Virus record (IMG/VR): IMGVR_UViG_3300037010_001702
Location: 175,442-239,441 of that record
From: a virus
DNA: 64,000 nucleotides
Direction: 5' to 3' (one strand)
This document shows, piece after piece, positions 9,721 through 52,731 of the stretch. Position numbers and translations under genes: made by a program. Within the stretch, counting starts at the first letter, position 1; each line of letters starts with the position of its first letter. The notes below the pieces were generated by a model. It saw nothing but the letters and a program-made list of their open reading frames with translations. It made no database searches and was not told where the DNA came from.

Positions 9721-10779
9721 ATGAAATGTATTCTGCGAATAACCGATGAAGTATGGTGCCAGATATCTGGTATAATGCCTGGGCATGTAGAGACATTAGT
9801 AAAAGCATTTTCTGTTCACCCAGAAGGTTATTTTTTTATGCCTGCCTTCAAGCTTGGGAGATGGAACGGATATATCCAATTTTATTCTCCAACAGGTAAG
9901 ACCTATGTCCGTCTATTAGATCAGGTTATCCCTTACTTAGAGAAGTGGGGATATGACATTGAGCTGATAGATAATCGAAAGTACTTTGAACCTCCTGTAG
10001 TTGGCGGTAAGCTTTTGACTATTGACCCTGCGGGCATTGCTCTCACTGCTTCTGGGACTAACATAATGGGCGATGATGTTGTCGTTGGCGGAAAGGTATT
10101 CAATCTCCGCCCATACCAATTACAGTGTGTTCAGATTGCTGTAGAGAATGGAAGTGGTTTCATTATCGCAGGAACTGGTGCAGGCAAAACCTCCATCACA
10201 GGTGCTCTCTCCTACTACTATGCCAATGCCGGCTATAAAGTAATCACGATTGTTCCATCCGGTGATCTTGTAGACCAAACAGCTGAGTGGTATGAACTCC
10301 TAGGTCTAGATGTAGGCACCTATTCTGGTACAGAGAAGGACCTTGACCACATGCACATCGTTGCAACGTGGCAGGCAGTACAGTATAATCCTACAATCAT
10401 GCATGACTTTCAATGTCTGATTTGGGATGAGTGTTTTTGTGGTGAGACTCCTGTATTGATGTCTGACATGACGGAAAAGAAAATAAAAGACGTTCGGGTC
10501 GGTGATTATGTTTTATCAATGGACGCAAACGGAAATTTCGAGCCTTGTAAAGTGTTAAAAACTCACATTAATTTACCAAAATCTAAGGTAAAAATGCTTC
10601 GGCTAACGTTTGATAATGGACGTTATTTAGATGTTACCGAAAATCATATTTTCTATCTAAAAGATGGTAGAAAGGTTATGGCAAAAGATTTAACTGAGCG
10701 TGATGATATATGTGAATTCTCCTTAAATAAAATGAAAGCTCATGGAGATAAAGTGAATGAAGAAGAAAATCATAAATGA
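9721..10779 (+). CDS. uvsW: UvsW helicase N-part fused to N-half of a split intein
   Basis: 352 residues. Residues 1-237 are the N-extein: an N-terminal UvsW-type domain, Q-motif-like LRPYQLQ near 129 and Walker A AGTGAGKTS at about 150-158. The extein ends at LIWDE. Residue 238 starts a class-1 intein N-half (115 aa): block A CFCGETPVLM and block B TENHIF with the Thr-x-x-His signature. The rest of the intein and helicase is encoded at 11643. Trans-splicing would rebuild WDE-CHGIKA, restoring the DECH box (motif II). UvsW unwinds branched DNA and R-loops and controls origin use in T4. Confidence 0.9.
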   Translation: MKCILRITDEVWCQISGIMPGHVETLVKAFSVHPEGYFFMPAFKLGRWNGYIQFYSPTGKTYVRLLDQVIPYLEKWGYDIELIDNRKYFEPPVVGGKLLTIDPAGIALTASGTNIMGDDVVVGGKVFNLRPYQLQCVQIAVENGSGFIIAGTGAGKTSITGALSYYYANAGYKVITIVPSGDLVDQTAEWYELLGLDVGTYSGTEKDLDHMHIVATWQAVQYNPTIMHDFQCLIWDECFCGETPVLMSDMTEKKIKDVRVGDYVLSMDANGNFEPCKVLKTHINLPKSKVKMLRLTFDNGRYLDVTENHIFYLKDGRKVMAKDLTERDDICEFSLNKMKAHGDKVNEEENHK

Positions 10780-11674
10780 TTTACTAGGAGATGAATTTTT
10801 AATAGATATTAAGTTTTTACCTAGAACCGGATCAGTCAGATTGCCTTTTGATTCAGCTGTATTTTCATGTGGTCGCAAGCTTAATAAAAAAGAGTTTGGT
10901 AAATTTTATAGACTATTAATGCAAGGTCATCTTGAAGAAGCTAGGACTTTTGTAGCAGCTCCACAAGAATTTGAAAAATTAAACAAACAACGAAGGCAGA
11001 TTGCTGCTTCTAAAGGTGGTAGGGCTGCCATGTTAGATCCGAAAAATTATGTTTGTAATAAAAATGGTACGCATTGGAATAGAGGGACAGTTGGATTAGT
11101 TAAGGCATGGAACAAAGGATTAACTAAAAATACTGATGTTCGATGCAAAAACATCTCTATCGCTAAAATGGGAGCAAAAAACCCAATGTATGGTAGACCA
11201 GTATCAGCTTTAACGCGTGAAAAGTTATCATTAAAAGCAAAGCAAAATATTGAATCAGGTAAATGGACCCCTAATACGTTTAATTCTAGAACAAGAAAGC
11301 AACTTAAATTTAGAGATAAACTTTTCAGAAGTAGCTGGGAGGCTCTTTTTTATCAAGCATTTCCACAAGCAGAATACGAAAAGATTAGAATACCGTATTT
11401 TACTGATAAGCATCACGTTTACATTACCGATTTTAAAGTTGGTAATGTAATTTATGAAATAAAACCTGAGAAGTACGTAAAATTAAAACAACCCATTCTT
11501 GATATAGTAGCACGCTGGTGTGTTAGCAATGGATTTGAATTTGTTATATTAACTGAATTTTCTTTAACAGAACTAATACCAAAACACACTGTTAATTTTA
11601 GTGAATTTGATGAAAATACTGAAAAACTATTAAGAGGATTATATGCATCTGTTGAAAAAAGAAGAAATAGATAA
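10757..11674 (+). CDS. Free-standing homing endonuclease, Vsr-like with NUMOD3
   Basis: 305 residues lying between the two halves of the split-intein uvsW and overlapping both (22 and 32 bases). The middle contains AKNPMYGRPVSALTREKLS, a NUMOD3 DNA-binding module. The C-terminal nuclease core has SSWEALFYQAF (Glu), VYITDFKV (Asp) and IYEIKPEKY (E-x-K), a PD-(D/E)xK arrangement like the Vsr-type homing nucleases seen in fractured phage genes. It presumably cuts intein-less uvsW alleles and spreads the cassette. AT-rich compared with the flanking helicase, consistent with acquisition. Confidence 0.8.
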   Translation: MKKKIINDLLGDEFLIDIKFLPRTGSVRLPFDSAVFSCGRKLNKKEFGKFYRLLMQGHLEEARTFVAAPQEFEKLNKQRRQIAASKGGRAAMLDPKNYVCNKNGTHWNRGTVGLVKAWNKGLTKNTDVRCKNISIAKMGAKNPMYGRPVSALTREKLSLKAKQNIESGKWTPNTFNSRTRKQLKFRDKLFRSSWEALFYQAFPQAEYEKIRIPYFTDKHHVYITDFKVGNVIYEIKPEKYVKLKQPILDIVARWCVSNGFEFVILTEFSLTELIPKHTVNFSEFDENTEKLLRGLYASVEKRRNR

Positions 11675-12500
11675 GCCAGAAAAAGTTTATGATTTAACTG
11701 TTGATAAACACCACAACTATATTGTTAATGGTGCTGTTGTTTCGAATTGTCACGGTATCAAAGCTACTGTTGCGCAGAAACTTGTCAATGATAATGGTAA
11801 GCACATTGCATTCCGCTTTGGCGTAACAGGAACATTCCCTAAACCAGAGTCTGAAAAGCTTTCTCTTATTACTTCAATTGGGCCTATCCTCAAAGAGATT
11901 CCTGCTGCGTGGTTAATTGACCATGGTTATCTTGCTAAGGTTCAGATTCAGCCTGTTGAATTGAATGAGAGTTATATCGATGAAGACTTTCCTGACTATG
12001 CTGCTGAGAAATCCTTCTTAGCTAAGAGCACTAATCGAATGGAGATCATTGCTGATTTGATCATCTCTCAATGTGCAGCGCATGGCAATACTCTTGTCCT
12101 GGTTAACTCTATTCCATTTGGTGAAAAGTTAGCTAAGCTGATTAAGGGTGCTGTCTTTCTTTATGGCGAATCACCAAAAGACTTGCGCCGCGAACATTAT
12201 GATATGTTTGAAGAGAATGATGATATAATAGTAATAGCCTCAGCAGGTATTGCTTCAACAGGCCTCTCGATTGACCGTATTTTCTGTATGATGTTTGTAG
12301 ATGCAGGTAAATCCTTCATCAAAGCTATTCAATCAGTAGGGCGCGGTCTTCGTATTGGACATGACAAAGATTCTGTTATGGTTGTCGATGTTCACTCTAA
12401 ACTAAAATGGGCAGTGAGGCACTTTAAGGAACGAGTGAAGCACTACAAAGAAGCTGGATACCCAATAAACAAGAAACAAACTTTGAAAGTAAAAGGTTAA
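11643..12500 (+). CDS. uvsW: C-half of split intein fused to UvsW C-part
   Basis: 285 residues. Residues 1-35 form the intein C-half, with block F VYDLTVDKHHNYIVNG and the end VVSN before Cys36. The penultimate residue is Ser rather than the usual His. The C-extein starts CHGIKATVAQKLV and holds helicase motif III (FGVTGTFP) and motifs V-VI (IIVIASAGIASTGLS, QSVGRGLR). N- and C-exteins together give about 487 residues versus 503 for T4 UvsW. AGAGGATT precedes the ATG. Confidence 0.9.
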   Translation: MHLLKKEEIDKPEKVYDLTVDKHHNYIVNGAVVSNCHGIKATVAQKLVNDNGKHIAFRFGVTGTFPKPESEKLSLITSIGPILKEIPAAWLIDHGYLAKVQIQPVELNESYIDEDFPDYAAEKSFLAKSTNRMEIIADLIISQCAAHGNTLVLVNSIPFGEKLAKLIKGAVFLYGESPKDLRREHYDMFEENDDIIVIASAGIASTGLSIDRIFCMMFVDAGKSFIKAIQSVGRGLRIGHDKDSVMVVDVHSKLKWAVRHFKERVKHYKEAGYPINKKQTLKVKG

Positions 12501-14273: not shown

Positions 14274-15926
14274 ATGTCAAATGAGATTGGTGTCGTTAAA
14301 CGCAGCGGCAAAAAAGTTCCACTCAACATCGAAAAGTGGCAAGCTCAAATCCAAAAAGTATGTGAGGGACTCGATGGTGTATCTCCCTCCATGATTGAAA
14401 TTGCGGCTCAAGCCCACTTCTATGATGGGATGGAGACAAGAGAATTAGATCGCATGGCTCTTCGAGCAATGATCGATTTAATTGACGAAGAAGAACACCC
14501 AGATACCGGTAATATCAACTATCAATATGCTGCTGGAAGACAGCGCGTATCAATGCTTCGTAAAGATGTTTATGGAGATTACGCCCCACCATCCCTTTTG
14601 AGTATCGTAAAGAAGAATGTAGAGTTGGGTCTCTACACCCCAGAGCTGCTCACGTGGTACTCTGAAGATGAATGGAACCAAATGGAGAAATTCATTGACC
14701 ATGACAAAGATGAAATACTACCAATCGCAGCTGTTGAACAGCTTATTGAAAAATACCTGGTTCAAGATCGCTCAAAGAGCAACTCGGTTGTTGAGACTCC
14801 ACAAGTCCGCTACATCGTCGCAGCAGCTACTGCCTTCCATGCAGAGACCAAGGACAGAATGCGCTGGGTTAAGGACTTCTACAACTCTAGTTCAGACGGA
14901 CTATTCACTCTTGCTACACCAGTCCTTGCCGGGCTTGGAACAAAAACTAAGCAATTCAGTTCATGTGTGCTTATCAAGTCTGACGACACCCTCAAATCAA
15001 TCTTTGCAAGTGGGCAAGTCATGGCCGACTATGCTGCTAAACGTGCGGGAATCGGCCTCGATGTTGGCCGCCTTAGACCATTAGGTGCGCCCATTAGAGG
15101 AGGAGAAGTTAAGCACACTGGATACATTCCATTCCTCAAGAAATGGTTCGGAGACCTTCGTTCGTGCTCTCAAGGTGGAATACGGAATGCGTCTGCCACC
15201 ATCAACTTCCCAATTTGGCATTATCAATTTGACGATCTTATCGTCCTAAAGAATAACCAAGGTACTGACGAGACACGCGTTCGTCACATGGACTACTGCG
15301 TAGTCATGAACAAGTTCTTCTGGAAGCGCTTCAAGCAGCAGGGCGTAATCACCTTCTTCGATCCAAATGAAGTGCCTGATCTTTACGAAGCCTTCTATGC
15401 TGACTCAGTTCGCTTTGAAGAGCTCTACGAGATGTACGAAGCGCGCACTGATCTTCGCAAGAAGGTAGAGCCAGCAGAAGTCGTCATTAAGGATTGGTTG
15501 ATCAAAGAACGTGGTGACACTGGTCGTTACTACATTCTGAACATCGACAACGTTGCTAATCAAGGTCCTCTTGATCCATCTGTTCACCCAATCTACCAAA
15601 CAAATCTCTGTGTATCGCCAGACACTATTATTAATTGCACGGTTGACGGTACTAAAATGGATATTTCTATATTAGAGTTGACCAGCCTATTCAGCATGAA
15701 TAAAAAAATAAAGGCACTTAGTAAAAATGTAGCTACTGGTGAAATATCGTACGAGTCAGTTACAGCTGCTGCTAAAACTGATATCAATCGCAAACTACTG
15801 AAAATTACTGACTCTGTTACTGGAAAATCGATTAAAGTTACAGCAAATCATAAAGTATGGACTAAAAATCGAGGCTGGGTAGAAGCTGGTTCTTTAAAGT
15901 CAGACGATTTACTAGACCTGATTTAA
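14274..15926 (+). CDS. nrdA: Ribonucleotide reductase large subunit N-part fused to N-half of a split intein
   Basis: 550 residues. N-terminal ATP-cone (VVKRSGKKVPLNIEKW), class Ia core with SSCVL (Cys231) and CSQGGIRNASATINFPIWH. The N-extein ends at residue 445 in YQTNL. Residue 446 begins the intein (CVSPDTII; block B VTANHKVWT), 105 residues long. The C-part is at 16730. Splicing would rebuild YQTNL-CTEIMQH, equivalent to the E. coli SNLCLEI with active-site Asn437, Cys439 and Glu441. It reduces ribonucleotides to deoxy forms. GGAGAAAAAC precedes the ATG. Confidence 0.93.
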   Translation: MSNEIGVVKRSGKKVPLNIEKWQAQIQKVCEGLDGVSPSMIEIAAQAHFYDGMETRELDRMALRAMIDLIDEEEHPDTGNINYQYAAGRQRVSMLRKDVYGDYAPPSLLSIVKKNVELGLYTPELLTWYSEDEWNQMEKFIDHDKDEILPIAAVEQLIEKYLVQDRSKSNSVVETPQVRYIVAAATAFHAETKDRMRWVKDFYNSSSDGLFTLATPVLAGLGTKTKQFSSCVLIKSDDTLKSIFASGQVMADYAAKRAGIGLDVGRLRPLGAPIRGGEVKHTGYIPFLKKWFGDLRSCSQGGIRNASATINFPIWHYQFDDLIVLKNNQGTDETRVRHMDYCVVMNKFFWKRFKQQGVITFFDPNEVPDLYEAFYADSVRFEELYEMYEARTDLRKKVEPAEVVIKDWLIKERGDTGRYYILNIDNVANQGPLDPSVHPIYQTNLCVSPDTIINCTVDGTKMDISILELTSLFSMNKKIKALSKNVATGEISYESVTAAAKTDINRKLLKITDSVTGKSIKVTANHKVWTKNRGWVEAGSLKSDDLLDLI

Positions 15927-15927
15927 T

Positions 15928-15979
15928 GTGTGCCCCGTTATTTCTCTATAAATAATAGTACAGAGATTATGGGGCACAC
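15928..15979 (+). promoter_or_regulatory. Late promoter inside a hairpin that sequesters the endonuclease ribosome site
   Basis: GTGTGCCCC (15928-15936) pairs with GGGGCACAC (15971-15979), extended by a weaker inner stem. The TATAAATA late core is at 15947-15954 in the loop. The GGGG of the ribosome site is in the 3' arm, just before ATG 15981. Late RNA starting downstream of the promoter would lack the 5' arm. I-TevI of T4 is controlled in the same way. Confidence 0.75.
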
Positions 15980-15980
15980 T

Positions 15981-16736
15981 ATGAAAGATGTAATGTACAG
16001 AGTTTATTGTTGGACAAGTAAAAGTTCAGGCAAATCTTATATTGGATACACTGGAGATGGTGTTTATTTTAGATGGTCGAAACATGTTTTGAGGGCAACA
16101 ACTGGTGGAAAGACATATTTTGATAAGGCAATAAGAAAACATGGTGTAGATGATTGGGTATGCAAGATCATTTTTGATACTCATTTGGAGCATGAAGCTA
16201 AACTAATTGAAATTAAAATGATTAAAGAACTGGATACTTTAGCTCCTAATGGATATAATTCAACACCTGGTGGCAGTGGTGGCAATACATGGTTCGGCGA
16301 AAATGTTGCTGCAAGAAAAGAAGTGTTGAGCAAGAGTAACTCTGGCAGAAATAATCCAAGGGCAGCCACAGTAATAGATGATGAGCTACTTGTTGCAGCA
16401 ATTGCTCTGTGGAAAGATAATGGATGCAATTGGATTCAGTCAAAATGGTTTGATTTGTGTAAGTTGAAAAAGTGGCCAACGCACCTGGTTAAATGGAGAT
16501 TTTCTAAATTTGGTGGGGGCCTCAGGGGATTGAAAGCTGCAATGCTAGATAAACTAAAGAGTGATGGATATGATATTTCAGAAATTAAATATTCTGCAAC
16601 ACCTGCCCACCGCAGCAAAGTAAGCAAACAGAATTTAGGTAAAATTTGGGTAACAGATACTGCAGCTAACAAATCTTATTTAGCTTTTGCTACTGAATTA
16701 AAATTAGACACTATTATTAAAGGCAGAAAATGTTAA
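15981..16736 (+). CDS. GIY-YIG homing endonuclease between nrdA halves
   Basis: 251 residues. The N-terminal GIY-YIG domain reads MYRVYCWTSKSSG then SYIGYTG, with Arg in FRWSKH, AIRKHGVDDW and catalytic Glu in EIKMIKELDTLAPNGYN followed by TPGGSGG. The C-terminal half is a DNA-recognition region. The start is at 15981 because GGGG is correctly spaced; in-frame GTG 15930 and ATG 15969 lie inside the hairpin. It overlaps the C-terminal nrdA part by 7 bases. It presumably mobilises the split-intein cassette. Confidence 0.85.
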   Translation: MKDVMYRVYCWTSKSSGKSYIGYTGDGVYFRWSKHVLRATTGGKTYFDKAIRKHGVDDWVCKIIFDTHLEHEAKLIEIKMIKELDTLAPNGYNSTPGGSGGNTWFGENVAARKEVLSKSNSGRNNPRAATVIDDELLVAAIALWKDNGCNWIQSKWFDLCKLKKWPTHLVKWRFSKFGGGLRGLKAAMLDKLKSDGYDISEIKYSATPAHRSKVSKQNLGKIWVTDTAANKSYLAFATELKLDTIIKGRKC

Positions 16737-17818
16737 TTATAGAAGAATTAGATGATGTAAGTGATGTTTTTGATATCACTGTTGAAAACACTCACACTTT
16801 TTATGGAGATGGAATATTGGTTCATAACTGCACAGAAATCATGCAGCATACCCGTCCATTCCAAACAATTGAAGATCCGGAGGGCCGCATTGCTCTATGC
16901 ACGCTTGGCTCCATTAATTGGGGTTCATTCCGCAATCCAGAAGACATGAAGCGTCCAGCTGTAGTTCTTCACAGAGCTCTTCACAACCTTCTTCAGTACC
17001 AAGACTTCCTGTCAGTGCATTCTGAACTTCACAACAAGGAATTTGAACCTCTTGGTATCGGCATCACCAACCTTGCATACTGGCAAGCTAAGCGTAAGCT
17101 GAAGTATGGTGAAGCAGATCAACTAGCTGAAGTAAAGCGCTGGATGGAACACCAATCCTTCTACTTGATCGAAGCTTCTGTCAATCTTGCTAAAGAGAAA
17201 GGTCCTTGCCTTGCATCTGCTCAGACACGTTATGGTCAAGGTATCTTTCCTTGGGAGCTTCGTGCTGAAGGTGTCAATGAACTAACTGACTTCACACCTT
17301 CTGAAGATTTGGATTGGGAAGGTCTTCGTGCTAAGATGAAACAGTATGGCATTCGTAATGCTACAAACATGGCAATTGCTCCAGTTGAATCTTCTTCTGT
17401 TGTTATCAATTCAACAAATGGTTTCAATCTTGTTAAACAGCTGATCATCATTAAGGAATCCAAAGCTGGTGCATTCGCGCAAGTTGTTCCTGAGTATCGT
17501 AAGCTGAAGAATCATTACCAGCTGCTTTGGGATCAAAAGGATTGCATCGAGTACATCAAGACTGCTGCAGTTTTGCAAGTCTATGTTGATCAAGGTATCT
17601 CTACTGATACATTTTACTCTGGAAAGTATTTCCCAGAAGGAAAGATTCCTGCTACATTGATTGCTAAGAACCTTATGCTAGGAGCGAGATGGGGGATAAA
17701 ATCTTGGTATTACGATTTGAGAGATAAGCAAGGATCAAAGGAGATGCTTCAAGAAAGTTTTGTTCCTGTTCAAGCTGAACCCGAAGTTGAAGAATATTGC
17801 GAAAGCTGCATACTGTGA
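16730..17818 (+). CDS. nrdA: C-half of split intein fused to ribonucleotide reductase C-part
   Basis: 362 residues. Residues 1-33 are the intein C-half (block F VFDITVENTHTFYGDG, end GILVHN), with the normal His-Asn before Cys34. That Cys is both the +1 splice nucleophile and the catalytic thiyl cysteine of the reductase. The C-extein (329 residues) includes TLGSINWGSF, MAIAPVESSSVV, SWYYDLRD (radical-transfer tyrosines) and a C-terminal CESCIL redox pair. Reconstituted length is about 774 residues (E. coli NrdA 761). Confidence 0.92.
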   Translation: MLIIEELDDVSDVFDITVENTHTFYGDGILVHNCTEIMQHTRPFQTIEDPEGRIALCTLGSINWGSFRNPEDMKRPAVVLHRALHNLLQYQDFLSVHSELHNKEFEPLGIGITNLAYWQAKRKLKYGEADQLAEVKRWMEHQSFYLIEASVNLAKEKGPCLASAQTRYGQGIFPWELRAEGVNELTDFTPSEDLDWEGLRAKMKQYGIRNATNMAIAPVESSSVVINSTNGFNLVKQLIIIKESKAGAFAQVVPEYRKLKNHYQLLWDQKDCIEYIKTAAVLQVYVDQGISTDTFYSGKYFPEGKIPATLIAKNLMLGARWGIKSWYYDLRDKQGSKEMLQESFVPVQAEPEVEEYCESCIL

Positions 17819-24228: not shown

Positions 24229-24690
24229 ATGGCATCTAAGTTGGGAACTTACGTAGGTCTTCACGTCCTGAATCCAGCCAATGAACTTCTGTATAAACAC
24301 TGTAAGGATGCTGGGGTACCAGTACGAACTTCCATGTTCAAAAATCGATTGCACACGACTGTGATTTACAGTCGAACACATTGTAATCAAATAAATCTTG
24401 ATCATGGTCAGAAATATGTTGCTCGATTTGCTGGGTATGACATCTTTAGTGGTCAAAAGGGTGAAAACGTTTTAGTGATGAAGCTTGACGCACCTGGTGT
24501 ATCTGCCCTGCATAATCAGATTATGTCTGAGAATGAAGATGCGACGTACGACTATGCCGTATATAGACCACACATTACGCTCTCATATAATTACACTGAC
24601 AACAGTACAATGGGCATACCAATCTTCCCTCATGACATCATATTGGGCGAGGCATATGTGGAAGCGTTGGATTTAAAATGGGGTAAATAG
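24229..24690 (+). CDS. 2H phosphoesterase, Acb1-like (candidate anti-CBASS nuclease)
   Basis: 153 residues, the size of T4 Acb1 (gene 57B product). Two H-x-T motifs sit where the family requires them: LHTTVIYS (His42, Thr44) and PHITLSY (His115, Thr117). Acb1 cleaves the cyclic nucleotides used by CBASS defence and so blocks that immunity. The early promoter fits an immediate counter-defence role. Other 2H enzymes (RNA ligase or cyclic phosphodiesterase) share the motifs, so the exact substrate is inferred. Confidence 0.7.
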   Translation: MASKLGTYVGLHVLNPANELLYKHCKDAGVPVRTSMFKNRLHTTVIYSRTHCNQINLDHGQKYVARFAGYDIFSGQKGENVLVMKLDAPGVSALHNQIMSENEDATYDYAVYRPHITLSYNYTDNSTMGIPIFPHDIILGEAYVEALDLKWGK

Positions 24691-25481
24691 TGGAACAAGA
24701 AACAAATGTTGTAATGGACCCTATGGGTGATCGCCTAAAGGCAGCAGAACGAGTTGAAGCTGGAAGACGTTGCGATCCTAACAAGCCTCTAATGGCTCGT
24801 CTTGATGGCAAAGCATTTCACACCTTCACGAAGGGTCTTGCTCGGCCGTATGATGTGCGTCTAAGCACGCTCATGATCGATACTGCTCGCTATCTAGTTG
24901 AGCACACTCATGCAAAGTTAGGTTACACTCAATCGGATGAGATCACTCTCTACTGGTTAAACAAAGATCCACTCGCAGAGTCCTCGTACATGTTTGATGG
25001 TAAGTTTCAGAAGCTAACTTCTGTTCTTGCTGGGATGGCAAGTGCGTTCTTCACAAAAGAACTTGCTACACGTCTCCCTGAAAAAGCTCATCTGCTTGGT
25101 GTCTTTGATTGCCGTGTTTGGAATGTAGAAAGTTTTGAGGACGTTAAAGATAACTTTATCTGGCGTCAGGATGATGCTATTAAGAATAGTATCTCGATGG
25201 CAGCACAAGCTATCTTCTCTCACAAAACTCTGCATGGGGTTGGTTCGGAAGCTAAGAAGAAAATGCTTCGTGAAGCTGGTAAGCCATGGGAAGATGAACC
25301 CGAATTTTTTAAGTGGGGTTCGTATGTTTCGAGAGTCAGCTTCGAGGCACCTCTTACTGAAGAACAGCTCGCTAAAATCCCAGAAAAGTTTCGACCTACT
25401 GGGCTTGTAATGCGTAGTGATGTTCAAGTGCGAACTGACATTGGGTATCTACGTAACAACCCGAGCGTTTTAGAAGCTTAA
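24690..25481 (+). CDS. Thg1-like 3'-5' nucleotidyltransferase (tRNA-His guanylyltransferase family)
   Basis: 263 residues from the GTG that overlaps the previous stop (TAGTG). Metal-binding Asp in MARLDGKAFHTF (about 39) and in TQSDEITLYW (about 83), then FDGKFQKLTSVLAGM, FDCRVWNV and WRQDDAIKNSISMAAQ, the conserved Thg1 series. These enzymes add nucleotides in the 3'-5' direction; Thg1-like proteins in prokaryotes repair 5' ends of tRNA. Together with the CCA-adding enzyme and kinase this suggests tRNA maintenance. Confidence 0.85.
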   Translation: MEQETNVVMDPMGDRLKAAERVEAGRRCDPNKPLMARLDGKAFHTFTKGLARPYDVRLSTLMIDTARYLVEHTHAKLGYTQSDEITLYWLNKDPLAESSYMFDGKFQKLTSVLAGMASAFFTKELATRLPEKAHLLGVFDCRVWNVESFEDVKDNFIWRQDDAIKNSISMAAQAIFSHKTLHGVGSEAKKKMLREAGKPWEDEPEFFKWGSYVSRVSFEAPLTEEQLAKIPEKFRPTGLVMRSDVQVRTDIGYLRNNPSVLEA

Positions 25482-40703: not shown

Positions 40704-41804
40704 ATGATGAAAATATATAGCTGCGGTGGAGCAGTCCGCGATAAATTACTGGACCTACCTGTCAGCGACATGGATTATGTTGTTGTGGGTTCCACCGAGC
40801 GAGAAATGCTGGATGCTGGATTTAAACCTGCTGGAGCATTCTTTCCTGTCTTTCTACACCCTACTACCGGGGACGAATACGCCCTCGCCCGTAAGGAAAA
40901 GAAGAGTGGAGCAGGCCATACGGCTTTCACTGTAGAATTCGACAAGGAAGTTACCCTGGAGGAAGACCTAGCTCGGCGTGATCTGACGATCAATGCGATG
41001 GCAAAGGATCTGGAAACTGGAGAAATCGTTGACCCATTCCATGGTCAACGAGATTTGAAGCACAAAATCCTGCGTCATACGTCCGATGCTTTTGCTGAAG
41101 ACCCCCTGCGCGTGGTTCGCCTTGCCAGATTCTATGCTCGCTTTGACGACTTCGGAGTGGCAGATGAGACGCTGGCAATGGCTCAGAAGGTTGTTCAGTC
41201 TGGTGAAATGGATACTCTGTCCGAAGAACGTTTTTGGGCTGAAATGGACAAGATGTTTCGCACTTGCAGAAAGCCTGACCGCTTCTTTGCTGCGCTGTGG
41301 AGCTTCTATGCTCTAGACAATGTGAAGTTTTTCAAGGATCTGTTTGGTGACAGAACTACCATAGAAGATCTGACTTGCATTGAAGAGTTTGCTATTATGG
41401 CTTCTCGTACTCATCCAGACTTTAGGCTGACTGCATTCGTTGCAGTAGCTGGAAAGTTTGCGCACGACATCAAGGGAACGACTACTGAGATGATGAAGTT
41501 GCATAAGGCTGTGCAAGCAGTCAGAAGTCTGCCAGATGAAATGACGGGATTGGATTTGCTAAACTTTTTGAAGAACATGGGCGCAAGCACAAAGCCTTCG
41601 AAGACACTAGAAAATCTGTACGATCTACTTCGCCTAGGTCCAAAATCTTTGGATACAAAACTGAGTGCTGACAGTTTGACTACTATTTTTGAAGCAGCAC
41701 ATTCTGTTAAGTCTGACGAACCAACGTTTGCTGGACTGGAAGGTATCGCTCTAGGATATGCAATGAACAAAGAACGTGTTAAAAGAATTGATGGAGTACT
41801 ATGA
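40704..41804 (+). CDS. cca: CCA-adding tRNA nucleotidyltransferase
   Basis: 366 residues, strikingly like E. coli Cca over the first 200: GGAVRDKLLDLPVSDMDYVV (catalytic Asp22, Asp24), FFPVFLHPTTGDEYALAR, RRDLTINAMAKD, EDPLRVVRLARFYARF. The C-terminal HD phosphohydrolase domain of bacterial Cca is missing (412 residues in E. coli). It repairs or adds the CCA end of tRNAs. A bacterial origin is likely. It could also maintain the phage tmRNA 3' end, although CCA is encoded there. Confidence 0.9.
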   Translation: MMKIYSCGGAVRDKLLDLPVSDMDYVVVGSTEREMLDAGFKPAGAFFPVFLHPTTGDEYALARKEKKSGAGHTAFTVEFDKEVTLEEDLARRDLTINAMAKDLETGEIVDPFHGQRDLKHKILRHTSDAFAEDPLRVVRLARFYARFDDFGVADETLAMAQKVVQSGEMDTLSEERFWAEMDKMFRTCRKPDRFFAALWSFYALDNVKFFKDLFGDRTTIEDLTCIEEFAIMASRTHPDFRLTAFVAVAGKFAHDIKGTTTEMMKLHKAVQAVRSLPDEMTGLDLLNFLKNMGASTKPSKTLENLYDLLRLGPKSLDTKLSADSLTTIFEAAHSVKSDEPTFAGLEGIALGYAMNKERVKRIDGVL

Positions 41805-51627: not shown

Positions 51628-51795
51628 ATGAAGCTACGAGAATTGTTCGAAGATATCGGCAAGAAGACTGAAGTTCAGCTCGAAAAAGGCCTGTCAAGGG
51701 ACGAGGCTTTAAAGTTAGCTCCGTGGAAGAAAAAGTACGGAGACTGCAGAGCATTCTTCTACAATCCTAAAACAGGAGTAGCGACATGGATATGA
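51628..51795 (+). CDS. Small protein with MKLREL leader, 55 aa
   Basis: ATG 51628 after a late promoter and TTAAGGATGAG. Begins MKLRELFEDIGKKTEVQLEK and ends with FFYNPKTGVATWI. The MKLxE(I/L) start recalls the leaders at 17815, 29945 and 33500, possibly a packaging signal. The stop overlaps the next gene. Confidence 0.55.
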   Translation: MKLRELFEDIGKKTEVQLEKGLSRDEALKLAPWKKKYGDCRAFFYNPKTGVATWI

Positions 51796-51974
51796 GTGAA
51801 GATCAGAAACAAACACTTGAGACTATTGTTGAGGGTGGTGCAGAAGTAAGTACTGTTGCGTATAATCCTTCAAGCGTAACAGGCGACCCTGAGGGTGATG
51901 CTATCTCCACTGGATGGGTCCAGTACGCGAGACAAGCAAGCGCTTCGTTAGTTGAAGTAGTCTACACAAGATAA
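51786..51974 (+). CDS. Small hypothetical protein, 62 aa
   Basis: Overlaps the upstream gene; ATG 51786 or 51792 (ATGA). MDMSEDQKQTLETIVEGGAE and a polar remainder. No motif. Last gene before the tmRNA locus. Confidence 0.5.
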   Translation: MDMSEDQKQTLETIVEGGAEVSTVAYNPSSVTGDPEGDAISTGWVQYARQASASLVEVVYTR

Positions 51975-52082: not shown

Positions 52083-52420
52083 AGCGTAAACTTAGATTAG
52101 GAAATGATTGTGACACCCGGGGGCAGTGCCCGGCAGGTCCACCAAAAGAACTCTAAATCTTACAGAAATGTTTGAACAGGTTTGGTATCCCAGATCCCTC
52201 TTGCATAGGTAAAACTGATAACAAAGACAGATATGCCAAGAGTTCTTTTAATGGGCTTGACACAGGATCGACCACGAAAAAAGTATTTGTTTGAGCGCTC
52301 GTCAGGCGATCGACGTTAAAGAAGCAAAACTATAAACGCAAACGACAAATTTGTGATGGCTGCCTAATTGGCTTGCCGGAGTTTTTGAGGGTTTATCTTA
52401 GCAACAGAATTAAACCCTCA
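52083..52420 (+). ncRNA. ssrA: Circularly permuted (two-piece) tmRNA
   Basis: The acceptor piece comes first. The T-arm stem CCGGG (52117-52121) pairs with CCCGG (52129-52133) around a 7-nt loop GGCAGTG; then the acceptor 3' strand CAGGTCC, A and CCA (52134-52144). After a 108-nt intervening segment the 5' half starts with GGGCTTG (52253-52259). These 7 bases pair fully with CAGGTCC and give the G3.U alanine identity pair. GACACAGGATCGACC is the D-arm analogue. P2-type pairings join the pieces: CACGA with TTGTG, ATTT with AAAT, GTTTG with TAAAC, CGCT with AGCG. The tag frame is at 52338-52367, and a 9-bp hairpin (GAGGGTTTA/TAAACCCTC, about 52387-52418) follows. tmRNA with SmpB rescues stalled ribosomes and tags nascent proteins. 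Processing would excise the intervening loop; the outer ends are uncertain. Confidence 0.9.
52338..52367 (+). other. tmRNA proteolysis-tag reading frame (ANDKFVMAA)
   Basis: Resume codon GCA at 52338, then AAC GAC AAA TTT GTG ATG GCT GCC TAA. With the charged alanine the tag would be AANDKFVMAA. The AND start is shared with E. coli (ANDENYALAA) and the AA end is the ClpXP-type degron. TATAAAC just before the resume codon corresponds to the frame-setting region. Confidence 0.9.
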
Positions 52421-52446: not shown

Positions 52447-52731
52447 ATGGATATGGGCGAAATTTCACAGCTGGAGCTGGATTTACTTTTGCTGTTCTAC
52501 ACATACTCTAATCAGTTTGGAACTGTTGATATTGACTTCTGTGCCAAGTTCGCCGCCGATAAAATGGGTGTCTTCATTTTGAAGCAGCCCTTCCAATTTA
52601 CTCAAGAGCACCTTGACTGTCTTATGGACAACGGATTAGTTCCGGACACACGCGAACTTCTAACTGTCATCCCACTTAACAGACCAAAGATAAAAGCGAG
52701 AAGAGTTAGAAAGCCCAAGGAATCTGGTTAA
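52447..52731 (+). CDS. Hypothetical protein, 94 aa
   Basis: GCAAAGGATAAGAATA precedes the ATG, 27 bases after the tmRNA hairpin. Hydrophobic helix near the start (LELDLLLLFYTYSNQFG), basic C-terminus (RPKIKARRVRKPKESG). No family recognised. Confidence 0.55.
   Translation: MDMGEISQLELDLLLLFYTYSNQFGTVDIDFCAKFAADKMGVFILKQPFQFTQEHLDCLMDNGLVPDTRELLTVIPLNRPKIKARRVRKPKESG

What the first reader, a model, noticed from the sequence alone, without database searches (positions are those of the whole stretch)
52083..52420. Phage-encoded circularly permuted tmRNA
Seen: an acceptor piece with T-arm, acceptor strand and CCA (52117-52144) lies upstream of a 5' half starting GGGCTTG (52253) that pairs with it over 7 bp, including a G3.U pair. 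Next come a D-arm analogue, P2 pairings between the pieces and a tag frame ANDKFVMAA. Established: two-piece permuted tmRNA occurs in alpha-proteobacteria, some beta-proteobacteria and some cyanobacteria, and G3.U is the AlaRS identity element. Inference: the phage supplies its own ribosome rescue and tagging RNA with a divergent tag, perhaps to redirect or reduce proteolysis of stalled phage products. A permuted form on a phage is unusual and hints at host phylum.
Basis: partly seen in the sequence, partly recalled or inferred. Interest (0 to 1): 0.95.

Follow-up and report, generated by a model that had tools for sequence, protein, structure and literature searches.

The report
Phage-encoded two-piece tmRNA gene
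This giant phage carries its own gene for the two-piece RNA that rescues stalled ribosomes and tags unfinished proteins for destruction; the gene is real and conserved in related phages, and since phages were already known to carry such genes, what is new is mainly where it occurs and that its form does not follow the host.

Summary
Window 52083-52420 holds a complete circularly permuted tmRNA gene (Rfam tmRNA_permuted 100.5 bits, alpha_tmRNA 89.8 bits; ARAGORN tag ANDKFVMAA). It lies near one end of a 239-kb fragment of a jumbo phage related to Xanthomonas phage XacN1. Ten of 14 related loci carry a permuted tmRNA directly upstream of the same small gene. Across these and XacN1 the acceptor stem, T-arm and P2 show compensatory changes, and G3.U never varies. 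In most of them a further helix closes the intervening sequence, starting exactly at A76 of CCA and ending 3 nt before the mature 5' end. The form does not reveal the host phylum: XacN1, isolated on a gammaproteobacterium, has an unannotated permuted tmRNA, and one locus in sister phages scores alpha-type in some, beta-type in others. The tag does not look built to escape proteolysis: related tags keep AN-D/E at the start and a hydrophobic-(A/V)-A end. No SmpB gene was found, so host SmpB must serve. Phage two-piece tmRNAs were already known (PMC9004378), so this is a new member of a known kind, with extra interest in its long residence in jumbo phages across host classes.

The parts
52083..52091 (+). 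P2, 5' strand in the acceptor piece (AGCGU, continuing AAAC)
   Evidence: Rfam RF04321 alignment; covaries with 52295-52299 among relatives
52117..52133 (+). T-arm, stem CCGGG/CCCGG with alphaproteobacterial-type loop GGCAGUG
   Evidence: stem covariation; loop type compared
52134..52144 (+). acceptor 3' strand CAGGUCC, discriminator A and encoded CCA: 3' end of the acceptor piece
52144..52154 (+). 5' strand of the helix closing the intervening sequence (AAAAGAACUCU; first A is A76 of CCA)
   Evidence: 11 bp, 0 of 2000 shuffles as long; also in the unconstrained fold
52145..52252 (+). intervening sequence, 108 nt, expected to be removed from the precursor
52239..52249 (+). 3' strand of the closing helix (AGAGUUCUUUU), followed by AAU before the mature 5' end
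52253..52259 (+). acceptor 5' strand GGGCUUG with G3.U; mature 5' end of the coding piece (predicted RNase P site 52252/52253)
52260..52272 (+). D-loop analogue (ACACAGGAUCGAC)
   Evidence: Rfam alignment
52295..52299 (+). P2, 3' strand in the coding piece (GCGCU)
52300..52315 (+). hairpin CGUC-AGGCGAUC-GACG downstream of P2
52338..52367 (+). tag reading frame: resume codon GCA to stop UAA, ANDKFVMAA
   Evidence: ARAGORN
52387..52419 (+). 3' terminal stem-loop GAGGGUUUA...UAAACCCUC with conserved GCAACAGAA motif of alpha-type tmRNA
   Evidence: Rfam RF01849 alignment
51786..51974 (+). upstream small gene P0010; homologue also upstream of the tmRNA in relative L267
   Evidence: 37% identity, E 9e-18; seen also
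52447..52731 (+). downstream small gene P0008 (94 aa, no known family), the conserved neighbour of the tmRNA in related phages
   Evidence: no family hit

Best explanation
52083-52420 is a complete circularly permuted tmRNA (ssrA) gene resident in a lineage of jumbo phages. Shown by sequence: the gene order acceptor piece, intervening sequence, coding piece; the paired acceptor stem with G3.U; P2 between the pieces; the tag frame; and covariation in relatives. Inferred: phage transcription yields a precursor in which the acceptor stem is continued by an 11-bp helix closing the intervening sequence. Host RNase P cuts at 52252/52253 and a 3' processing activity frees the CCA end at 52144, leaving a two-piece tmRNA held by the acceptor stem and P2. 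Host AlaRS charges it through G3.U. Host SmpB takes it to ribosomes stalled on broken phage or host mRNAs late in infection. The nascent chain gets Ala plus ANDKFVMAA and is degraded by host ClpXP-type proteases, so ribosomes are recycled for the phage. It is probably one part of the phage's own translation-support kit, together with Thg1, a CCA-adding enzyme, an RNA ligase and, in near-complete relatives, a large tRNA cluster.
For: Rfam and ARAGORN hits. A permuted tmRNA sits upstream of the same small gene in 10 of 14 related loci, including one identical sibling contig. Covariation: 95.3% of cells paired, 9 of 16 pairs changed on both sides, 0 of 500 shuffles as high, and slid controls far lower. 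G3.U is invariant in 11 sequences while pairs 4 and 5 take up to five pair types. Outer P2 covaries: AU/UA/GC, CG/UA, GC/UA/CG. Tag frames are intact in all relatives, with AN-D/E start and hydrophobic-(A/V)-A end. The closing helix keeps the same register at changed sequence. Thg1 and CCA-adding enzyme are in the window, RNA ligase elsewhere in the genome. Relative G026 has the tmRNA about 15 kb before a cluster of over 40 tRNA genes.
Against: No transcript or processing data exist. No promoter match lies upstream on the + strand. The window's inner P2 is weak, with mismatches, and the two-piece cofold is not better than shuffled controls (z 0.4); the precursor fold is only z -1.4. No SmpB was found in G000 or four relatives, so function depends on a compatible host SmpB. 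Four of 14 loci lack the tmRNA, so it is dispensable in some phages.
Confidence: 0.82

Rival explanations
1. The phage tmRNA is a decoy: it binds SmpB and AlaRS or occupies stalled ribosomes and thereby shuts down the host's own trans-translation rather than performing it.
For: Mycobacteriophage DS6A carries little more than the tRNA-like domain, and a similar molecule was reported to inhibit tmRNA strongly (PMC4131195). No phage SmpB was found.
Against: The coding part, resume codon, in-frame stop, tag ends and 3' terminal hairpin are kept intact in every relative read, which a decoy would not need.
Confidence: 0.06
2. One reading: the divergent tag redirects or weakens proteolysis of stalled phage products.
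For: The tag is short (9 codons) and begins ANDK where 24 of 25 sampled alphaproteobacterial tags begin ANDN. One relative ends LVA (L277, ANEKFALVA).
Against: All tags of the clade keep a hydrophobic residue plus (A/V)-A at the C terminus and AN-D/E at the start, the parts that established work assigns to ClpX and SspB recognition. AND-D/E/K tags are normal in Gammaproteobacteria.
Confidence: 0.07
3. A recently captured host tmRNA gene carried as a passenger, for example by imprecise excision, without selected function in the phage.
For: tmRNA genes are common integration sites, and fragments occur in prophages (discussed in PMC9004378).
Against: It occupies the same place between homologous small genes in divergent phages. 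Sequences have diverged widely with compensatory changes. The window copy scores 89.8 bits, below all but two of 131 above-cut-off alphaproteobacterial genes (G171, a partial match of 96.5 bits, is close; a second copy in G143 is lower). The gene is complete.
Confidence: 0.03
4. A chance resemblance or computational artefact.
For: None found.
Against: E-values of 5e-23 and 2e-18, conservation and covariation, and an identical copy in an independently named contig.
Confidence: 0.005

Closest known systems
Alphaproteobacterial two-piece tmRNA (Rfam RF01849; Caulobacter type)
   Same: Gene order, GGCRGUR-type T-loop, G3.U acceptor, 3' hairpin with GCAACAGAA, encoded CCA; 89.8 bits, over the cut-off.
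   Different: Most sampled alphaproteobacterial genes score far higher (143-313 bits for full-length primary copies). The tag is ANDK, not ANDN. The intervening sequence is long (108 nt; sampled bacterial median 32) and closed by a helix in a fixed register.
Betaproteobacterial two-piece tmRNA (Rfam RF01850)
   Same: Sister-phage genes at the same locus match it at 109-127 bits.
   Different: The window copy scores 54.7 bits, below the 84-bit cut-off.
Two-piece tmRNA of marine phages (Melnitz, Pelagibacter phage Mosig and others; PMC9004378)
   Same: Permuted tmRNA encoded by a phage; in Melnitz the type also fails to match the host lineage.
   Different: Here the carrier is an XacN1-related jumbo phage; no glutamine riboswitch or other Rfam hit lies nearby; the position beside a conserved small gene is specific to this clade.
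Xanthomonas phage XacN1 (AP018399)
   Same: Closest cultured relative by major capsid protein (62% identity); also has Thg1 and a CCA nucleotidyltransferase (PMC5852040) and, found here, an unannotated permuted tmRNA.
   Different: The XacN1 tmRNA lies in the tRNA-rich terminal repeats, with tag ANANTFDYALAA and a different neighbourhood.
One-piece tmRNA of mycobacteriophages, Bacillus phage G and others (PMC4131195)
   Same: Phage-encoded ssrA.
   Different: To general knowledge those are standard, unpermuted genes.

Membership tests
Permuted (two-piece) tmRNA, Rfam RF04321 | Covariance-model score at or above the curated cut-off (47 bits) | tested here: met
   100.5 bits, full-length 1-213
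Permuted (two-piece) tmRNA, Rfam RF04321 | Acceptor 3' half with CCA encoded upstream of the 5' half, joined by a 7-bp acceptor stem | tested here: met
   52134-52144 and 52253-52259
tmRNA (general) | G3.U wobble pair in the acceptor stem (AlaRS identity) | tested here: met
   Invariant in the window and 10 relatives
tmRNA (general) | In-frame tag with resume codon, stop, and C-terminal hydrophobic-Ala-Ala | tested here: met
   ANDKFVMAA then UAA
tmRNA (general) | Helices supported by compensatory changes | tested here: met
   the inner part of P2 in the window itself is weak
tmRNA (general) | Transcription, two-piece processing, alanylation, SmpB binding, tagging | not testable with these tools
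   Needs infected cells or purified RNA
Alphaproteobacterial tmRNA, Rfam RF01849 | Score at or above the cut-off (50 bits) | tested here: met
   89.8 bits, 1-355; lower than nearly all bacterial members sampled
Alphaproteobacterial tmRNA, Rfam RF01849 | ANDN tag start found in sampled members | tested here: not met
   ANDK here; 24 of 25 sampled bacterial tags begin ANDN. A habit of the bacterial group, not a formal criterion
Betaproteobacterial tmRNA, Rfam RF01850 | Score at or above the cut-off (84 bits) | tested here: not met
   54.7 bits, though sister-phage copies pass
Complete phage-encoded trans-translation system | Phage-encoded SmpB | tested here: not met
   No PF01668 match in the 239-kb record or in four relatives (three of 343-385 kb, one 101-kb fragment); G000 is itself incomplete

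The most novel reading that the evidence does not exclude
A phage-resident lineage of two-piece tmRNA, kept in XacN1-like jumbo phages and carried across host classes, including into hosts whose own tmRNA is one-piece. It works with whatever SmpB the host provides. The lineage shuffles alpha-type and beta-type features at one locus, and its precursor has a phage-typical helix that starts at A76 and holds the RNA in register for processing.
Probability: 0.4. Interest if true: 0.65.

Novelty: new member of a known kind. Interest (0 to 1): 0.47.

Why it matters
If it works as proposed, a lytic jumbo phage brings its own ribosome-rescue RNA and relies on the host only for SmpB, AlaRS, RNase P and proteases. 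The link to XacN1, whose host is a gammaproteobacterium, makes a clear question testable in culture: can a two-piece tmRNA serve in a cell built around a one-piece tmRNA? It also warns against using phage tmRNA type to predict host phylum, and offers a set of covarying precursors for studying how permuted tmRNA is processed.

Tried and rejected
DNA-level search of phage records with the locus and with the tmRNA alone gave nothing beyond short weak matches. Protein search with the neighbours P0007 and P0008 found only an identical sibling contig, useless for covariation; a profile of P0008 homologues worked. A scan of 84,980 species genomes for an ANDK-encoding signature gave 84 stretches, none with an ARAGORN tmRNA, so it identified no host. 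Thermodynamic folding was not decisive: two-piece cofold z 0.4 for the window, precursor z -1.4. A promoter scan found no + strand match. The idea that this phage has a tmRNA but no tRNA genes was dropped: G000 is truncated close to the place where collinear relative G026 has its tRNA cluster. Clean alpha/beta mosaicism was considered; T-loop type and 3' motif combine freely in phages but not in the 25 sampled bacteria, yet a 7-nt loop can change on its own, so recombination is not shown. A first parse of the Phosso tmRNA failed.

Full report
Identity. The window is the last 64 kb (175442-239441) of a 239,441-base IMG/VR virus record. At 52083-52420 on the + strand, cmscan finds tmRNA_permuted (RF04321, 100.5 bits, cut-off 47) and alpha_tmRNA (RF01849, 89.8 bits, cut-off 50), both full length and the only Rfam matches in the window. 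ARAGORN independently calls a permuted tmRNA with tag ANDKFVMAA. The 3' terminal hairpin (52387-52419) with GCAACAGAA is typical of alpha-type genes.

Carrier. The surrounding genes are phage genes: single-strand DNA binding protein, UvsX-like recombinase, helicase, endolysin, ribonucleotide reductase, clamp loader, DNA ligase and tail fibres, with portal, major head protein and DNA polymerase elsewhere in the record. The major capsid protein is 62% identical to Xanthomonas phage XacN1 and 55% to Stenotrophomonas phages CM1 and RAS14. The same phage encodes Thg1 (24690-25481) and a CCA-adding enzyme (40704-41804) in the window, and an RNA ligase elsewhere. No tRNA gene was found in the 239 kb, but the window is collinear with about 22-92 kb of relative G026 (368 kb), and G026 has over 40 tRNA genes from about 105 kb on. 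The missing tRNA genes in G000 are therefore most likely a truncation effect.

Conservation. Among 43 records sharing the capsid protein, the two of about 360 kb (G009, G026) both have a permuted tmRNA; the others are fragments. The gene downstream of the tmRNA (P0008, no known family) is homologous in all three phages, and the upstream gene P0010 is homologous in G026. A profile of P0008 found 14 loci in IMG/VR. Ten carry a permuted tmRNA immediately upstream, one of them an identical sibling of the window. Four do not (L279, L283, L284, L286), and their records have none elsewhere, including the 343-kb record of L283; in L279 and L283 a P0010-like frame directly precedes the P0008 homologue (read from the sequence). 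So the gene is a long-standing but dispensable resident of this locus.

Structure test. Eleven distinct sequences (window, nine relatives, XacN1) were aligned without structure and the Rfam-derived acceptor stem, T-arm and downstream hairpin were counted. Of 171 cells, 95.3% form standard pairs; 9 of 16 pairs have changes on both sides; the covariation score is 0.392 against 0.099 in shuffles (0 of 500 as high), and sliding the partner by one to three columns collapses it. Acceptor pairs 1-3, 6 and 7 are constant, with G3.U in all; pairs 4 and 5 take two and five pair types. Outer P2 was checked by hand: position 1 is A-U, U-A, G-C or G.U; position 3 C-G or U-A; position 4 G-C, U-A or C-G. The alpha-like group has one pair fewer and L285 has one mismatch. 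The inner part of P2 in the window is weak, and a free two-piece cofold does not beat shuffles. This structure therefore rests on comparative evidence, not on energy.

Processing helix. The intervening sequence differs in length (30-114 nt) and sequence, yet in 8 of 11 genes the A76 of CCA (or the equivalent A) starts an 11-13-bp perfect helix whose other strand ends exactly 3 nt before the mature 5' end; in the window 0 of 2000 shuffles gave one as long. On the same fixed register, helices of at least 7 bp occur in 38 of 53 distinct intervening sequences from IMG/VR contigs but in 5 of 23 from sampled Alphaproteobacteria; shuffles give 0.55 and 0.15. The IMG/VR set was gathered by one DNA pattern, may include relatives and mislabelled bacterial contigs, and the bacterial set holds only top-scoring genes, so the contrast is suggestive only. 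Inference: the helix keeps the precursor folded while leaving the three leader bases and discriminator-CC unpaired; the abstract of PMC9433436 (shown) says that leader pairing with 3'RCCA inhibits binding to bacterial RNase P. L285 lacks an encoded CCA, which would require a CCA-adding enzyme.

Tag. The clade's tags are ANDKFVMAA, ANDEKFLMAA, ANDELFMIAA, ANEKFALVA, ANEANFLMAA, ANDAFFGEELRLAA, ANDDTFEEVYGLAA, ANDSAYALAA, ANDTFAYALAA and ANDDNYMELRLAA (L275, L276 and L285 translated by eye); XacN1 has ANANTFDYALAA. Of 25 sampled alphaproteobacterial tags, 24 begin ANDN; sampled gammaproteobacterial tags are mostly ANDD or ANDE, with one ANDK. Middle and length vary while the ends are kept, which fits a degradation tag under selection. 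Evasion of proteolysis is not supported.

Host. The window copy is alpha-type by Rfam and below the cut-off for beta (54.7 bits), but six sister loci are beta-type above the cut-off, and XacN1, isolated on the gammaproteobacterium X. citri, carries a permuted gene in both terminal repeats, unannotated in the record and not mentioned in its paper. In sampled Gammaproteobacteria 1 of 369 genomes passes the beta permuted model, and 28 of 29 tmRNAs read there are one-piece. That X. citri itself has a one-piece tmRNA is general knowledge, not tested here. The type of tmRNA thus does not tell the host, and the host of the window phage is unknown.

Function. Complete architecture, conserved G3.U, intact tag frames and compensatory evolution argue for a working tmRNA. 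SmpB was not found in G000, G009, G026, the 343-kb record, a 101-kb relative or XacN1, so the host's must be used. The most likely benefit is rescue of ribosomes stalled on damaged mRNA during a long infection, as part of a phage translation-support kit. Transcription, processing, charging and tagging remain unshown.

Novelty. Phage tmRNA is long known (PMC4131195), and two-piece phage tmRNA was surveyed in PMC9004378: 402 phages with tmRNA, 53 of 133 unique structures two-piece, mostly marine. PMC11915505 lists 79 bacteriophage tmRNA sequences. This is therefore a new member of a known kind. What appears unreported in the papers searched is its occurrence and synteny in XacN1-related jumbo phages, the unannotated gene in XacN1, and the fixed-register closing helix.

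Noticed in passing
AP018399.1 (Xanthomonas phage XacN1) 37231-37530 and 356026-356325; loci L269, L271, L272: Permuted tmRNA gene (123 bits, tag ANANTFDYALAA) in both terminal repeats of a cultured phage of a gammaproteobacterium; absent from the record's annotation in the stretch read and from the paper text.
   Followed up: partly
PV764938.1 (Sinorhizobium phage Phosso) 349596-350198; loci L270, L273: Permuted tmRNA (113 bits) in an unannotated gap, with an unusually long span of about 600 nt; ARAGORN misses it.
   Followed up: no
window 14274-17818: Fractured gene: ribonucleotide reductase large subunit N part ending in an intein N-terminal splicing region, then a free-standing GIY-YIG endonuclease ORF, then intein C-terminal region plus reductase C part. 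The two reductase parts are contiguous in relative G026.
   Followed up: partly
window 9721-12500: Second fractured gene of the same kind: UvsW-like helicase split by an intein N half, an endonuclease ORF with weak TnsA-like similarity, and an intein C half with the rest of the helicase; contiguous in G026.
   Followed up: partly
window 24690-25481, 40704-41804; L005:13873-14967: Thg1 (tRNA-His guanylyltransferase), CCA-adding enzyme and RNA ligase in one phage: an RNA-end repair set.
   Followed up: partly
L285 about 2190-2480: A relative's tmRNA appears to lack an encoded CCA (acceptor strand CATCTCC, then A, then AAT), so it would need a CCA-adding enzyme.
   Followed up: no
L013-L131 (IMG/VR contigs): One 18-base signature hits at least 119 stretches of viral contigs, most with ARAGORN permuted tmRNAs, some with unusually long tags such as ANDNASNVFSFVDFSNARKYVNEDFALAA.
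   Followed up: partly
L281 / L266 upstream of the tmRNA: In G009 the gene directly upstream of the tmRNA is a 417-aa protein that reads like a major-facilitator transporter (by eye), not the P0010-like gene.
   Followed up: no
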